Shown one piece after another: positions 7,483-27,168 of a stretch of 64,000 nucleotides of DNA (position 1 is its first letter; the number at the start of each line of letters is the position of its first letter). The stretch comes from Tepidimicrobium xylanilyticum (GTDB taxonomy: Bacteria; Bacillota; Clostridia; Tissierellales; Tepidimicrobiaceae). The notes under the pieces were generated by a model that saw only the letters and a list, made by a program, of their open reading frames with translations, did no database searches and was not told the origin of the DNA. Both the position numbers and the translations under genes were made by a program. The stretch lies in the NCBI RefSeq assembly GCF_900106765.1, contig NZ_FNNG01000001.1:251774-315773 (forward strand), read 5' to 3'.

Positions 7483-8142
7483 TCACCGTTTCATACTAGA
7501 AGTTAGAACTAACCCATATATCCTTTTAGCTCCAGCTTCCATTAAAGTTTTGCTGCATTCAATTAAAGTTGCTCCTGTAGTAATTATATCGTCAATTAGA
7601 AGTATTTCTTTACCCTTGATATCCTTTATGTTCTTTACCTTGAAGGCTGATTTTAAATTGGTTTGCCTGGTTAATCTATCAAGCTTGTTTTGATCTTTAG
7701 TCCATCTAATTTTCATTAGATTATTTTTTAAAAGGGATATGTTTAGCATATCCGCTACATATTCTGCCAATAGCCCCGATTGATTATATCCCCTTATGGC
7801 CTCCTTCTTCCTATGGAGGGGGACATAGACAATTCCGTCTATCTTTTTATCCAACCCATTAAGCCTTATGGTGGTCAAAATCATCTCTCCAAAGGGCTTA
7901 TATAGATAGTTTTTACCCTCAAATTTATATGAATGGAGCTTTTCTCGAATGAATCTATTATATAGGACGGAATAATATATCCCTTCCATATAGGATATAT
8001 CTAGTTTTATATTCCCATGGACATACTCTATTAACTCATTACAATAGACACATATATAATCTTTAGCTTTATTCTCCTTACAAAAATAGCAGTAATCATC
8101 TCTAATGAATAAGAGTCTTTCCAATTCCTTAATTATTCCCAT
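7483..8142 (-). CDS. comFC: ComF family phosphoribosyltransferase-like protein ComFC
   Basis: Competence-associated protein of 219 residues, needed for natural transformation in species tested; here the function is inferred. The N-terminal zinc motif (CYFC ... CVYC) and the type I phosphoribosyltransferase PRPP loop ILLIDDIITTGAT (residues ~180-192) are both present, as is the RGYNQS motif. Its start overlaps the recD2 stop by 10 bases, so the two are probably co-transcribed. The helicase gene comFA that is often adjacent is absent here and its place is taken by recD2. Confidence 0.93.
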   Translation of the reverse strand: MGIIKELERLLFIRDDYCYFCKENKAKDYICVYCNELIEYVHGNIKLDISYMEGIYYSVLYNRFIREKLHSYKFEGKNYLYKPFGEMILTTIRLNGLDKKIDGIVYVPLHRKKEAIRGYNQSGLLAEYVADMLNISLLKNNLMKIRWTKDQNKLDRLTRQTNLKSAFKVKNIKDIKGKEILLIDDIITTGATLIECSKTLMEAGAKRIYGLVLTSSMKR

Positions 8143-10364
8143 AAGCTACCTCCTAAAAAGGAGGTTAGCATACCCCTCATCTTGTAATCTAGGCTTGAAT
8201 ACCTCTTTGCAACTTTATTGTTAGCAATCATATTATATAGATACCTTTCTTCTCCCACCAATACCACCAATTTCTTTGCCCTCGTTACTGCTGTATATAA
8301 CAAATTCCTAGTCAATAACATAGGAGGCCCCCAATATATGGGCATTATTACCACGGGAAATTCACTCCCCTGACTCTTATGAACTGTTGTGGCATAAGAT
8401 AGCTTAAGTTCATCCAACTGGTTAAAACTGTAATCCGCCTCCTTATCATCATCAAATAATACCTTTACAATTCTTTCCTCTTCATCTATGTCTAAAATTA
8501 TTCCTAGGTCTCCATTAAAAACTCCTTCCCCCTTTTCAGCTATTCCATCCTTTACCATTTGCCATTCCAAAGAGTAATTGTTTTTAATTTGCATTACCTT
8601 ATCCCCAACTCTAAATATATTATCCCCTACTACCTTTTCTTTCTTTAGGGGAGATTTAGGGTTTAATGTATCTTGCAGATATTTATTTAAAGCATTTATT
8701 CCTACATCTCCCTTTTTCATAGGTGTTAACACTTGGATATCCTTTAAGGGATCTACTCCATAATGGTTAGGAAGCCTTTCCTTACATAGGGAAAGGATTA
8801 TTTTTACAATATTTAAAGGATTGCTTTCCTTAATAAAGTAAAAATCGCTATCCTTTTCATTTAATATGGGTCTTTCCCCCTTATTAATCCTATGGGCATT
8901 AACTACTATAAAACTTTCTTCAGCTTGGCGAAATATCTCATCTAGCTTTACCACCTTTACAATTTGGCTATCAATTATATCCCTTAATACATTGCCAGCT
9001 CCTACAGATGGCAGTTGATCCGCATCTCCTACCAATATGAGCCTAGTCCCAGGAACTATCGCTTTCAACAAGCTGTTCATAAGGAGCAGGTCAATCATGG
9101 AAGCTTCATCAACTATTATTAAGTCCGTATCAAGAGGACTGTCCTCATCCTTGCCGAAGACCATTTCCTCTTCCATATAGGAATATTCTAGTAGCCTATG
9201 GATGGTCTTAGCCTCTATTCCTGTGGTTTCCGTCATCCTTTTAGCAGCCCTTCCAGTTGGAGCAGCTAGCGTTACAGTCAAGCCCTGTTCTTCAAATATT
9301 CTTATTATGGCCTTGATTATTGTAGTCTTACCCGTTCCCGGCCCTCCTGTGATTACTATGATCCCACTTCTAATGGACTCCTTAATAGCCTGAACCTGTT
9401 TATCTGCAAAAGTTATTCCTTCTTCCCCTTCAATAATTTTTATCATCTTATCAATATCCACTTCTAAATCTTTTAGATCTACCTGAGAAAGTTCTACTAT
9501 TTTCTTACTCACATTGTTCTCCGCCACATGGTAGGGAGTATAGTAGACCTTCACCTCATGATCGGCATTTAATATATGGACTATTCCTTTTATAGCCAAA
9601 TCCCTTATGGACTCTTCAATTAAATTTTCCTCTACCTGAAGCAGTTCCTTTGCACTTGAAACTAACTCCTCTTTGGGTACATAGGTGTGACCATTGGAAG
9701 CATATTGATTTATTACATATCTAATTCCCCCTTGAACCCTGTATGGAGAATTCTTATCAATTCCCATATTTTGAGCAATTCTGTCTGCTGTTTTAAATCC
9801 TATTCCAAATATGTCCTCTGAAAGCTTGTAGGGATTTTTAGAAATTATGTTGATGGTATCCTTACCATATTTCTTATAAATTCGGATGCCATAATTAGCA
9901 GTTATGCCATATTGCTGAAGGAAAACCATTATATCCCTTAACTCTCCCTGCTCCTGAAAAGCTTCAACTATGCCCTTCAATTTTTTATCCCCAATTCCCT
10001 CTATTTCCTTCAGCCTTTCCGGATTGTATTGTATGATGTCTAAAGTATCCAACCCAAATCTATCTACGATCTTTTTAGCAGTTTTAGGCCCTATATGAGG
10101 AATTAGGCCGGAAGATAGGTATTTTTCAATGCCATTTATGGTAGAGGGAACTACTATGGATATATTGGATATTTCAAGCTGTTCTCCATAATTTGGGTGA
10201 TATACCCATTCCCCCTCTACCTTTACAGTCTCACCTATATTGATAAAGGGTATATAGCCTACAATGGTAGCCTTTCCATCGGAAGTGTTAATGCTGGCCA
10301 CCGTATAGGTATTCAATTCATTTCTAAATATGATATCTTCTACCGTTCCTTCTAAAGTCAACAA
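8133..10364 (-). CDS. recD2: RecD2-type 5'-3' DNA helicase
   Basis: Superfamily 1B helicase of 743 residues, involved in DNA repair and replication-fork processing where studied. The N-terminal OB-like region is followed by helix-hairpin-helix segments (IPHIGPKTAKKIV, IEGIGDKKLKGI, FGIGFKTADRIA). Walker A GGPGTGKTT lies near residue 340, then Walker B DEAS, motif III GDADQLPSVG, and C-terminal motifs TTVHKSQGSEF and YTAVTRAKK. There is no RecC-type partner, consistent with RecD2. The start is TTG with AGAGGAG seven bases upstream. It follows the ComK-like gene and overlaps comFC. Confidence 0.95.
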   Translation of the reverse strand: MLTLEGTVEDIIFRNELNTYTVASINTSDGKATIVGYIPFINIGETVKVEGEWVYHPNYGEQLEISNISIVVPSTINGIEKYLSSGLIPHIGPKTAKKIVDRFGLDTLDIIQYNPERLKEIEGIGDKKLKGIVEAFQEQGELRDIMVFLQQYGITANYGIRIYKKYGKDTINIISKNPYKLSEDIFGIGFKTADRIAQNMGIDKNSPYRVQGGIRYVINQYASNGHTYVPKEELVSSAKELLQVEENLIEESIRDLAIKGIVHILNADHEVKVYYTPYHVAENNVSKKIVELSQVDLKDLEVDIDKMIKIIEGEEGITFADKQVQAIKESIRSGIIVITGGPGTGKTTIIKAIIRIFEEQGLTVTLAAPTGRAAKRMTETTGIEAKTIHRLLEYSYMEEEMVFGKDEDSPLDTDLIIVDEASMIDLLLMNSLLKAIVPGTRLILVGDADQLPSVGAGNVLRDIIDSQIVKVVKLDEIFRQAEESFIVVNAHRINKGERPILNEKDSDFYFIKESNPLNIVKIILSLCKERLPNHYGVDPLKDIQVLTPMKKGDVGINALNKYLQDTLNPKSPLKKEKVVGDNIFRVGDKVMQIKNNYSLEWQMVKDGIAEKGEGVFNGDLGIILDIDEEERIVKVLFDDDKEADYSFNQLDELKLSYATTVHKSQGSEFPVVIMPIYWGPPMLLTRNLLYTAVTRAKKLVVLVGEERYLYNMIANNKVAKRYSSLDYKMRGMLTSFLGGSLWE

Positions 10365-10441: not shown

Positions 10442-11023
10442 TCATTTTAAATTTGCTTGGATTTTTAATATCTCATTGATGAGTAGAGCTATATCCTGCT
10501 TGGTAGCAGGTTTTTCATATTCATTCAATAGAGAACTTTCCCTTATAACTGTAATGTTTTCCCTTTCCTTAACCAATCTCTTAACAATATGGCCATTCTT
10601 AACATGTTTATTCACCGTATCTATAGAAGATAGAGATTCTATGATATACCCGTCCGTTAATTGGATTAGCGTCTTATTCTCCTTTCTATAAACCCTATCG
10701 ATATAGTTTATATTCACATATCCAAAGGAACCATCATTTTTGCACACAGGCTTTCTTACCTTTACAGGAATAAAAACATCATCTACATTGAAGGGTATAG
10801 GGATTAGATTTTTTACATTTAATAGATTCCCATAGTATTTCTTTGTTGCCTTTAAATCCACTAAATAGAATTGACTAATTAGATTTAATATGGTCTTAAC
10901 CGTTCTTTCCATTTCATATTCCTTTCCCAATCCCGTTAGCAATAATGTACAATTTCCCTTCATATCTAGGTAAACTGGTATAAAAGCCCTTATTCCCTCA
11001 GAAAAAATTTTCTCCATATCCAT
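10442..11023 (-). CDS. ComK-like transcription regulator (tentative)
   Basis: Protein of ~193 residues. The core KKYYGNLLNVK, then IPIPFNVDDVFIPVKVRKP, then GYVNINYIDRVYRKENKTLIQLTDG resembles ComK as I recall it (RFYGxxY-xxKK, PPILxxPxxxxFFPTxS, WIxxHYVExI, VTFxNxxxL). In Bacillus ComK is the master activator of competence. The similarity was recognised by eye, so the family call is tentative. Context supports it: recD2 and comFC lie directly downstream and a sigma-factor cassette upstream. ATG at 11023 has AAGGAGG eight bases away. The gene has its own consensus promoter embedded in a 12 bp inverted repeat. Confidence 0.5.
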   Translation of the reverse strand: MDMEKIFSEGIRAFIPVYLDMKGNCTLLLTGLGKEYEMERTVKTILNLISQFYLVDLKATKKYYGNLLNVKNLIPIPFNVDDVFIPVKVRKPVCKNDGSFGYVNINYIDRVYRKENKTLIQLTDGYIIESLSSIDTVNKHVKNGHIVKRLVKERENITVIRESSLLNEYEKPATKQDIALLINEILKIQANLK

Positions 11024-11079
11024 CAATATCCCCTCCTTGACTCATTTTATCAGAACATATGTTTTATGTCAAGGAGGGG
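11024..11079 (-). promoter_or_regulatory. Consensus sigma-A promoter inside a 12-bp inverted repeat before the comK-like gene
   Basis: Minus strand: TTGACA (11072-11067), 17 bases, TAAAAT (11049-11044). Arms CCCCTCCTTGAC (11079-11068) and GTCAAGGAGGGG (11041-11030) are perfectly complementary, with a 26 base loop. The left arm covers most of the -35 element. The right arm contains the ribosome binding site, so the leader from the predicted start (~11037) is only about 14 bases. The loop also holds a palindrome, AACATATGTT, between -35 and -10. On the plus strand the repeat is followed by seven T residues and could act as an antisense terminator. Confidence 0.8.
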
Positions 11080-11084
11080 TTTTT

Positions 11085-11228
11085 TTATTTAAGCCCTGCT
11101 ATTACTTTGGAAAGTTCATTTATACTTTCCGTAAGCATATTCAGTTTCCCCTCTATTCTAACCAATAGGTAAATGGAAATGACTATGGGGAATCCTAAAT
11201 TTGCTATGTGGGTATAAATCTCTTCCAT
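11085..11228 (-). CDS. yvrJ: YvrJ family small protein
   Basis: 47 residues, starting MEEIYTHIANLGFPIVISIY. One hydrophobic segment (residues ~8-24) is followed by a charged amphipathic helix with Leu/Ile spacing (KLNMLTESINELSKVIAGL). This is the YvrJ family layout: a single-pass, probably membrane-anchored micropeptide of unknown function. The ribosome binding site GGAAAGGAG precedes the ATG. In Bacillus subtilis yvrJ neighbours the two-part sigma factor YvrI/YvrHa; here it also sits in a sigma-factor cassette. Confidence 0.85.
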   Translation of the reverse strand: MEEIYTHIANLGFPIVISIYLLVRIEGKLNMLTESINELSKVIAGLK

Positions 11229-11248
11229 AATATTACTCCTTTCCATAT

Positions 11249-11277
11249 GTTTTAAGCGGCCAAAGGCCGCTTAAAAC
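11249..11277. other. Perfect 13-bp hairpin between DUF2922 gene and yvrJ
   Basis: GTTTTAAGCGGCC and GGCCGCTTAAAAC are separated by AAA. There is no U-run on the minus strand. It probably reduces or processes transcription between the DUF2922 gene and yvrJ rather than acting as a canonical terminator. Confidence 0.7.
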
Positions 11278-11284
11278 TATAAGA

Positions 11285-11503
11285 TTAAATTTCCAGTTCA
11301 TCAATAATTGTGGTAATAATTCTAGCACTATCTGGCTCTACTATATCTCCATTAGCTGTGAAAAACACATTGCTATTCACTATTCCCTCCATTACAGCCT
11401 TAACCTCCATATCGGTTAAATCTAGTCTAGGATCGTCTATGGACAGGGTAAATTTTTTTCCCATCTCGTCTAGAAAATCCATTTCTAATTTAGCTCTTTC
11501 CAT
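11285..11503 (-). CDS. DUF2922 family protein
   Basis: 72 residues with the family pattern: an N-terminal strand (MERAKLEMDFLDEMGKKFTLSIDDPR), then DLTDMEVKAVMEGIVNSNVFF, and the C-terminal DSARIITTIIDELEI. Function is unknown. The ribosome binding site AGGAGGTGATT is near-perfect. It is sandwiched between DUF1659 and YvrJ genes, an arrangement I recognise as recurrent in Firmicutes. Confidence 0.85.
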   Translation of the reverse strand: MERAKLEMDFLDEMGKKFTLSIDDPRLDLTDMEVKAVMEGIVNSNVFFTANGDIVEPDSARIITTIIDELEI

Positions 11504-11536: not shown

Positions 11537-11761
11537 TTATTCGTTCTTTAATTGGATTTCTTCTAGCTTCTTAACTCTAAACAGTGGCAAATTTTGAAGC
11601 CCTGCCAAAGATGTGGCAACTTCATATAGATTCTCATTGTCTACTTCAGGCTTTACTTTGGAAAAGGTCTTAGATTTGATTATCTGTTTGTTTCCCTCCA
11701 TACCTCCATCTAACTCTAATTTCAGCCTTACATTTTCCTTAATATCCACAACAGCCATCAT
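11537..11761 (-). CDS. DUF1659 family protein
   Basis: 74 residues of beta-rich appearance (DIKENVRLKLELDGGMEGNKQIIKSKTFSKVKPE), then NLYEVATSLAGLQNLPLFRVKKLEEIQL. The pattern of a ligand-like strand pair followed by a helix with YxVAxxLAxLQ is typical of DUF1659. Function is unknown. GGAGGTGAG precedes two adjacent ATG codons. It lies directly after the sigma-factor gene and probably shares its transcript. Confidence 0.85.
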   Translation of the reverse strand: MMAVVDIKENVRLKLELDGGMEGNKQIIKSKTFSKVKPEVDNENLYEVATSLAGLQNLPLFRVKKLEEIQLKNE

Positions 11762-11797: not shown

Positions 11798-12352
11798 TTA
11801 TTTTACTATTATTTTTTTCAATTTGCTTAATCCCTGAGTCTTTATATTGACTACCGTCCTATAGGATATATTCAATTTATGAGCTATTTCCTGTATGGAT
11901 AATCCATTTATATAATAATCTACTACTACCTGCCTTTGCTTTTTAGTTAATTCTTTCAATCCCTTTAATAGAATTTCAGATTCTTCCTTCTTTAAAGCCA
12001 CATCCATTGGATCTTTCTCAAATCCCTCTAGAAAGTCAATGAATTCTCCATCTCCCATTTGGGAGTTTAATGAAAGATGCTGCCTTTCCTTATATTTCTC
12101 CAAATAATTGTATTTAAGCATTGTTTTTACATAGCCTAAGAACTTAACCCCTTTTGTTGGGTCGTATTCTTCAAAGGCTAATAGGATTGTTTTATATCCT
12201 TCTTGAATTAGGTCGTCATACTGGTCTAATCTATTGTAGTATTTCCTAATTGAGCTGATTATTAAGGGATTAAGTTTTAATAACAACTTTTCTTTGGCCC
12301 TAACATCTCCCCTTTTACTAAGGAATAAAAGTTCTTCTATTTCCTGATACAT
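11798..12352 (-). CDS. Small alternative sigma-70 family sigma factor
   Basis: 184 residues. Region 2 (DQYDDLIQEGYKTILLAFEEYDPTKGVKFLGYVKTMLKYNYLEKYKER) is followed by a short linker and region 4 with a C-terminal helix-turn-helix (LTKKQRQVVVDYYINGLSIQEIAHKLNISYRTVVNIKTQGLSKLKK). The size lies between ECF and SigH-type factors. It heads the DUF1659-DUF2922-YvrJ cassette and lies upstream of the ComK-like gene and recD2-comFC. Target promoters are unknown; a link to competence is inferred from position only. Confidence 0.88.
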   Translation of the reverse strand: MYQEIEELLFLSKRGDVRAKEKLLLKLNPLIISSIRKYYNRLDQYDDLIQEGYKTILLAFEEYDPTKGVKFLGYVKTMLKYNYLEKYKERQHLSLNSQMGDGEFIDFLEGFEKDPMDVALKKEESEILLKGLKELTKKQRQVVVDYYINGLSIQEIAHKLNISYRTVVNIKTQGLSKLKKIIVK

Positions 12353-26265: not shown

Positions 26266-27036
26266 CTAGTAGCCTATGGTTATTATGGGTGTGCCTATCC
26301 AAATATAGGTCTTATTATCATATTCACTAAAGCGAACTGCAATATTCAAATTCATTTTCTTATTCCCTGTAAATACATACTCCTCAATATAAGGAGTAAA
26401 TATAGAAAAGCTTAATATATCATCTTCCTTATATTCTTCTACTACATATCCTTCTATTAATTCTGTAACTTCTAATATCTTTTCCTCATTCCTCTTTGCA
26501 TCTACTTTATCATCAAAAGATCCGATTATGCAAGTAGTAATATTTACAGGCTTATTGTATTCATCAAAAAACTTTTCTACCTCTAATATTATATCATTTA
26601 TTTTATCAAATTTCTCCCTATTTATAAAATTTATAAACAGGGTGGTTTCGCCTGAACCATATTCTACGTCTTTATAGGAGGATAATGTAATAGTAACAAA
26701 ATTATTATAACCGTCCAAACCCTGAACCGTAAATTGAATAAATCCATCATCCTCTATCAGGTCTTCCCAATAATAATTCTTATGGGAACCATCTGTTCCT
26801 ATATTCAACATATCTCTAATAGAATAGCCAATATCTTTAATTTCTAAAGTGCCAATGAACCTATCCAATATAGTACCACCTAAGCATATATCCCCTTCTT
26901 CAAAATTAGCTCCAGTAGTTTCTAAAATTCCCATCAACAGCTCTCTTTCCTCATATTCATCCTCACCAAATCCAAATATGGGGATTAATAAAATAAGGAT
27001 AATTCCTATAATTATAAACTTACCATAATTTTTCAT
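26266..27036 (-). CDS. ywmB: YwmB family protein
   Basis: 256 residues with an N-terminal membrane or signal helix (KFIIIGIILILLIPIFGFG). The rest (LLMGILETTGANFEEGDICLGG; GQxY-like strands; NKKMNLNIAVRFSEYDNKTYIWIGTPIITIGY) matches the extracytoplasmic YwmB/TATA-box-binding-like fold seen between atpC and murA in Bacillus. Function is unknown. Assignment rests on conserved position plus the C-terminal Y-x-IGTPIIT-x-Y pattern. Confidence 0.75.
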   Translation of the reverse strand: MKNYGKFIIIGIILILLIPIFGFGEDEYEERELLMGILETTGANFEEGDICLGGTILDRFIGTLEIKDIGYSIRDMLNIGTDGSHKNYYWEDLIEDDGFIQFTVQGLDGYNNFVTITLSSYKDVEYGSGETTLFINFINREKFDKINDIILEVEKFFDEYNKPVNITTCIIGSFDDKVDAKRNEEKILEVTELIEGYVVEEYKEDDILSFSIFTPYIEEYVFTGNKKMNLNIAVRFSEYDNKTYIWIGTPIITIGY

Positions 27037-27060
27037 ACCCTTACCTCCAATTGTTTTTAA

Positions 27061-27126
27061 GGAAAGGGTATTTTAGTAAAAATGTAAAGGGGGACAAACA
27101 TTTTTATCATAAAAAATACCCTTTCC
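27061..27126 (-). promoter_or_regulatory. Large inverted repeat with embedded promoter between atpC and ywmB
   Basis: The 14-base arms GGAAAGGGTATTTT (27061-27074) and AAAATACCCTTTCC (27113-27126) are perfectly complementary. Inner arms AAAAATGT/ACATTTTT extend the structure. On the minus strand TTGTCC (27097-27092), 16 bases, TAAAAT (27075-27070) could serve ywmB-murA. Read-through RNA from atpC would fold the whole hairpin. Confidence 0.6.
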
Positions 27127-27168
27127 TTTGATTAAAGTATTGCCAAGAAAGGGTACTTTTTATACTTA

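What the first reader, a model, noticed from the sequence alone, without database searches (positions are those of the whole stretch)
11024..11079. Promoter in the loop, ribosome binding site in the arm: comK-like gene
A perfect 12 bp inverted repeat encloses a consensus sigma-A promoter. The left arm covers the -35; the right arm is the ribosome binding site. RNA made from this promoter starts inside the right arm, so the hairpin cannot form. RNA reading through from the sigma-factor/yvrJ cassette carries both arms and would hide the ribosome binding site. This would make translation depend on which promoter made the RNA, as known for phage T4 lysozyme. The repeat also spans promoter DNA and could bind a regulator.
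Basis: partly seen in the sequence, partly recalled or inferred. Interest (0 to 1): 0.85.

Follow-up and report, generated by a model that had tools for sequence, protein, structure and literature searches.

The report
SOS promoter inside an RNA hairpin
A DNA-damage-controlled switch for a competence-like gene sits in the loop of a conserved RNA hairpin, which should keep the gene silent in any RNA that runs in from the neighbouring genes and leave it active only in RNA started at its own promoter.

Summary
A perfect 12-bp inverted repeat (11030-11041/11068-11079, minus strand) encloses a near-consensus promoter. One arm contains most of the -35 hexamer and the other is the Shine-Dalgarno sequence. 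The identical 12-mer precedes a Y-family polymerase gene in the same genome, and it fits the clostridial LexA consensus.

In relatives, 21 distinct loci (window included) keep the pairing, and all 21 keep the LexA box. Compensatory changes occur at 7 pairs (19 cells; shuffles average 7), and non-Watson-Crick cells are mainly U-G, valid only in the sense RNA. The hairpin tracks direct abutment of the yvrJ cassette: all 18 loci with yvrJ 59-66 bp upstream have it. On a protein tree, four separate losses coincide with loss of the yvrJ junction. Predicted cost of opening the Shine-Dalgarno sequence is 16.6 kcal/mol (median) in read-through RNA and 1.1 in local RNA.

Most likely it is an insulator that keeps an SOS-induced comK-like/recD2/comF operon silent in read-through RNA, as in phage T4 gene e. 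Most relatives also carry a U-tract after the stem, so termination may contribute; the window lacks it. Function was not tested by experiment.

The parts
11068..11079 (-). Left arm CCCCTCCTTGAC; present only in RNA that reads through from yvrJ
   Evidence: Sequence; pairs with the right arm in 21 loci with compensatory changes
11067..11072 (-). -35 hexamer TTGACA
11053..11064 (-). LexA (SOS) box AAACATATGTTC in the promoter spacer
   Evidence: Same 12-mer before a Y-family polymerase gene; related boxes at lexA and uvrB of this genome; consensus GAACnnnnGTTT/C in PMC4234289; box in 21/21 hairpin loci and 33/39 others
11044..11049 (-). -10 hexamer TAAAAT
11037..11038 (-). Expected transcription start (inferred)
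   Evidence: 6-7 nt after the -10; not measured
11030..11041 (-). Right arm GTCAAGGAGGGG, holding the Shine-Dalgarno AGGAGG (11032-11037)
11080..11086 (-). A-tract before the left arm (T7 on the + strand); in most relatives it pairs with a U-tract after the right arm
10442..11023 (-). comK-like gene, 193 aa, ATG at 11023
   Evidence: distant ComK match in orthologues
8133..10364 (-). recD2, next gene downstream
   Evidence: order kept in relatives
7483..8142 (-). comF-family gene
11085..11246 (-). yvrJ ORF (PF12841), last gene of the upstream cassette; likely start ATG 11228
11285..11503 (-). DUF2922 gene of the cassette
11537..11761 (-). DUF1659 gene of the cassette
11798..12352 (-). Sigma-70 family sigma factor, first gene of the cassette

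Best explanation
The element is a transcript-origin switch acting as an insulator. The comK-like gene, and probably recD2 and comF behind it, has an SOS promoter repressed by LexA. RNA polymerase that runs on from the sigma/yvrJ cassette makes an RNA with both arms; these pair and bury the Shine-Dalgarno sequence, so the comK-like protein is not made without DNA damage. When LexA is cleaved, the promoter in the loop fires; that RNA starts inside the right arm, lacks the left arm and is translated. In most relatives the stem is followed by AUUUUU directly before the AUG, so it may also terminate read-through; in the window the U-tract is lost (AUAUUG) and the RBS lock is what remains on the sense strand. 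Shown by sequence analysis: arms, promoter, LexA box, covariation, co-loss with the yvrJ junction, predicted folding energies. Inferred: LexA binding, start site, existence of read-through RNA, translational block, benefit to the cell.
For: Pairing kept in 21 loci with 7 pairs showing double changes, 19 double-change cells against 7.0 in shuffles, covariation score 0.211 against 0.149 with 0/500 shuffles as high. Arm swaps between species pair worse than native arms in 5000/5000 shuffles, with the signal in the outer pairs. All 18 loci with yvrJ 59-66 bp upstream have the hairpin; four losses on the tree fall where that junction is gone. Median SD-opening cost 16.6 kcal/mol in read-through RNA, 1.1 in local RNA, 2.6 in read-through RNA of hairpin-less orthologues. 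LexA box in 21/21 hairpin loci.
Against: No RNA data: start site, read-through RNA and translation are unmeasured. The hairpin clade seems to share one origin, so many of the 21 loci are not independent. L010, L014 and L015 keep the pairing although yvrJ is 112-331 bp away. A ribosome ending at the yvrJ stop (11085), about 5 nt from the left arm, could transiently open the stem.
Confidence: 0.66

Rival explanations
1. The hairpin is above all an intrinsic terminator of the upstream cassette, compressed onto the promoter and RBS of the next gene. Hiding the SD is a by-product.
For: 19 of 21 hairpin loci have at least four T in a row between SD and ATG, against 2 of 39 other orthologues and 15 of 109 other genes. 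Several outgroup lineages have a separate stem-loop after yvrJ, with a T-tract in L025 and L026.
Against: The window itself has ATATTG there while its stem is perfect. The loop (26 nt or more) is long for a terminator. The U-tract is only 5-6 long and runs into the AUG.
Confidence: 0.2
2. The stem is opened on purpose: ribosomes finishing yvrJ unfold it and couple comK-like translation to yvrJ translation, so the cassette also drives the gene under some condition.
For: The yvrJ stop lies about 5 nt before the left arm in the window, and the gene order is kept in relatives.
Against: The close spacing follows from compaction alone. The SD is about 50 nt past the stop and a 12-bp stem would re-form behind the ribosome. 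Stems of up to 21 bp seem too stable for routine coupling.
Confidence: 0.06
3. The arms are a DNA operator for a further regulator.
For: It is a palindrome that overlaps a promoter.
Against: At one pair 15 of 21 loci have T opposite G, which keeps RNA pairing but breaks DNA symmetry; T-G cells outnumber C-A cells 23 to 2 (part of the bias comes from SD constraint). A LexA operator already lies between the arms.
Confidence: 0.03
4. Incidental: the -35 (TTGAC) and the SD flank (GTCAAGG) happen to be complementary.
For: Five of the twelve pairs lie in the -35, and the TTGAC pairs show no swap signal.
Against: The C-rich stretch before the -35 has no promoter role known to me, co-varies with the SD arm, and is missing in orthologues that have the same promoter but no yvrJ junction.
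Confidence: 0.03

Closest known systems
Phage T4 gene e (lysozyme) leader, with soc, gene 49 and I-TevI
   Same: Long transcripts form a helix that hides the SD; a promoter next to the RBS makes RNA lacking the 5' strand of that helix, which is translated (PMC3014915).
   Different: T4 uses late promoters timed by infection. Here it is a bacterial chromosomal gene, with a sigma-A-type promoter and a LexA operator inside the loop, and in most relatives a U-tract after the stem.
IS10 and IS50 protection from outside transcription (own knowledge, not tested here)
   Same: Read-through RNA folds over the transposase RBS; RNA from the internal promoter does not.
   Different: Mobile elements protecting themselves; no LexA operator between the arms as far as I recall.
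LexA/SOS promoters of Firmicutes
   Same: GAACnnnnGTTC/T operator between -35 and -10 (PMC4234289).
   Different: I know of no SOS promoter placed in the loop of an RBS-hiding hairpin; the searches made here found none.
ComK and the sigO-rsoA-yvrJ region of Bacillus subtilis (own knowledge)
   Same: Distant ComK similarity of the protein; a sigma-factor/yvrJ neighbourhood.
   Different: In B. subtilis comK is not, to my knowledge, LexA-controlled and is not next to that region.

Membership tests
T4 gene e-type transcript-origin RBS switch | A helix in long transcripts covers the SD | tested here: met
   Folding and covariation; prediction only
T4 gene e-type transcript-origin RBS switch | A promoter whose RNA lacks the 5' strand of the helix | tested here: met
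   Promoter inside the loop by sequence in 21 loci; start not mapped
T4 gene e-type transcript-origin RBS switch | Long transcripts exist and are poorly translated | not testable with these tools
   Needs RNA mapping and reporters
LexA (SOS) regulon | LexA box overlapping the promoter | tested here: met
LexA (SOS) regulon | LexA gene present in the genome | tested here: met
LexA (SOS) regulon | Induction by DNA damage | not testable with these tools
   No expression data
Intrinsic terminator | G-C-rich stem directly followed by a U-tract on the sense strand | tested here: inconclusive
   U-tract in 19/21 loci but not in the window; loop longer than usual
ComK (PF06338) | Window protein matches the family model above the gathering score | tested here: not met
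   No match of the window protein; 7 of 18 orthologues match at E<=1, best 6.5e-5
Rfam RNA families | Match above the gathering score | tested here: not met

The most novel reading that the evidence does not exclude
A roughly 60-bp four-in-one element conserved across a bacterial clade: terminator, RBS lock, SOS promoter and LexA operator superimposed, so that a competence-like DNA-uptake and recombination operon is expressed only from DNA-damage-induced transcripts and not from neighbour read-through.
Probability: 0.4. Interest if true: 0.75.

Novelty: new variant of a known kind. Interest (0 to 1): 0.62.

Why it matters
It would show that a bacterial chromosome uses a trick known from phage T4: where a transcript starts decides whether it can be translated. 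Here it would keep an SOS gene silent behind a neighbouring sigma-factor operon. It also gives comparative evidence that a ComK-like gene, usually followed by recD2 and comF, is under LexA control across this order (Tissierellales and relatives), which makes DNA-damage-induced competence in these bacteria directly testable.

Tried and rejected
A DNA operator in the arms: rejected from the U-G bias. Chance complementarity of -35 and SD: rejected from swap and slide controls and from orthologues without pairing. A known Rfam RNA: none. Re-use of the arrangement elsewhere: a scan of 20 family genomes for CTTGACN22-40GTCAAGG found the comK-like loci, a multi-copy 38-bp repeat and two other single matches (in G015 and in G003 contig 63) that were not examined. 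Papers: nothing found on LexA control of a ComK-like gene or on SD sequestration combined with a LexA promoter; the library is open-access only. Failed calls: one paper search with a term too short, one Pfam call with wrong coordinates, one report with wrong field types.

Full report
WHAT IS THERE. On the minus strand, between yvrJ (stop at 11085) and the comK-like gene (ATG 11023), 61 bp hold a perfect 12-bp inverted repeat around a near-consensus promoter. The -35 shares five bases with the left arm, and the right arm is the Shine-Dalgarno region. The expected start (11037-11038) lies in the right arm, so local RNA cannot contain the left arm. Dinucleotide-shuffled windows give 0.13 perfect repeats of this size, against 8 in the real window, and this is the only one rich in G-C. 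Read-through RNA folds the arms together (-26 kcal/mol); local RNA does not (-3.9).

The promoter spacer is a LexA operator. AAACATATGTTC fits the clostridial consensus GAACnnnnGTTT read on the other strand (PMC4234289). The same 12-mer stands before a Y-family DNA polymerase gene of this genome. uvrB has GAACGCTTGTTC and lexA has three boxes, two of them with the same kind of one-base deviation. A box precedes the gene in 21 of 21 hairpin loci and 33 of 39 other orthologues.

CONSERVATION OF THE HAIRPIN. Orthologues were collected from relatives and from the public genome collection, and their upstream regions compared. Twenty-one distinct loci, the window included, pair the C-rich stretch before the -35 with the SD arm; the stem is 12-21 bp in most. 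Examples of double changes: T-A to C-G and C-G to T-A in the Anaerosalibacter group; U-A to A-U in L020; C-G to U-A in L009 and L021, where the C-run and the G-run are both one shorter. Tool counts: 87.9% of cells paired, 7 pairs with double changes, 19 double-change cells against 7.0 in shuffles, covariation 0.211 against 0.149 (0/500), and better than any slid register. The alignment was made by hand-anchoring the two arms on TTGAC and on the SD flank, then realigned without gaps. When arms are swapped between species, no swap in 5000 pairs as well as the native set; the signal sits in the outer pairs, not in the -35. Non-Watson-Crick cells are mostly T-G (23) and rarely C-A (2), which points to pairing in the sense RNA; part of this bias comes from SD constraint on the G side.

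WHEN THE HAIRPIN IS PRESENT. All 18 loci with yvrJ ending 59-66 bp before the ATG have it. Three more keep it with yvrJ 112, 268 and 331 bp away. The two sister loci L010 and L014 have mismatches in the stem, as expected if constraint is relaxing. On a maximum-likelihood protein tree of 41 orthologues the hairpin needs five changes, readable as one gain and four losses: L018; L051+L181; L016+L031; L178. In each loss yvrJ was not found or lies about 800-900 bp away. Several forks of this tree are weakly supported. Several outgroup lineages in which yvrJ is upstream but more distant carry a separate stem-loop behind yvrJ, with a T-tract in L025 and L026.

ENERGY. The predicted cost of opening the SD in read-through RNA is 16.6 kcal/mol (median; range 4.4-19.4) in hairpin loci and 2.6 in other orthologues. 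In local RNA it is 1.1 and 0.8.

TERMINATION. In 19 of 21 hairpin loci the SD-ATG spacer has at least four T in a row, against 2 of 39 other orthologues and 15 of 109 other genes. These loci share ancestry, so the p-value overstates the case, but a sense-strand terminator is plausible in most relatives. The window has ATATTG there, so in this species termination is doubtful, while the RBS lock is intact. The loop is longer than in ordinary intrinsic terminators.

CONTEXT. The order sigma - DUF1659 - DUF2922 - yvrJ - [element] - comK-like - recD2 - comF is kept in most hairpin loci. The protein is a distant ComK relative: 7 of 18 aligned orthologues match PF06338 at E<=1 (best 6.5e-5), while the window protein does not. 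That the three downstream genes form one operon, and its role in competence, are inference.

MECHANISM. LexA represses the local promoter; read-through RNA, if any is made, is locked by the hairpin and in most relatives perhaps terminated; after LexA cleavage the local RNA starts inside the right arm and is translated. The nearest working model is T4 gene e, where the RNA structure lowers lysozyme synthesis 100-fold relative to transcripts without it (PMC3014915). Not shown here: LexA binding, start sites, read-through RNA, translation. LexA bound in the loop could in addition block passing polymerase; this was not tested.

VERDICT. Observation confirmed; interpretation supported and extended by a LexA operator and by comparative evidence. 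It is a new variant of a known kind, with good evidence for RNA pairing and none yet for expression.

Noticed in passing
window 27030-27165 (-): Between atpC and the next gene (26266-27036), a leader that is about 89% identical per column across ten family genomes: a 19-pair stem ending in T6, a second stem with compensatory changes around an invariant loop TTTGTCCCCCTTTAC, and a third stem covering SD and ATG; arm 2 can instead pair 16 bp with arm 3. No Rfam family above its gathering score. It may be an undescribed regulatory RNA.
   Followed up: partly
window 11249-11277: Perfect 13-bp hairpin with a 3-nt loop between the DUF2922 gene and yvrJ, directly before the yvrJ SD; no T-tract on the minus strand.
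   Followed up: no
L195:393-430 and other copies: Multi-copy 38-bp repeat CTTGACAATCTCAAGGCGNACTTTTATAATCGTCAAGG in several family genomes, often near contig ends: TTGACA-17-TATAAT also enclosed by a CTTGAC/GTCAAGG inverted repeat. Possibly the end of a mobile element; nature not determined.
   Followed up: partly
G000 contig 11 near 117161 and contig 13 near 758 (L125, L119): Two genes or fragments with a LexA-like DNA-binding domain, each next to a box GAACTTACGTTC.
   Followed up: no
L138, L140, L141: Some related genomes carry two or more comK-like genes side by side, mostly without a LexA box upstream.
   Followed up: no
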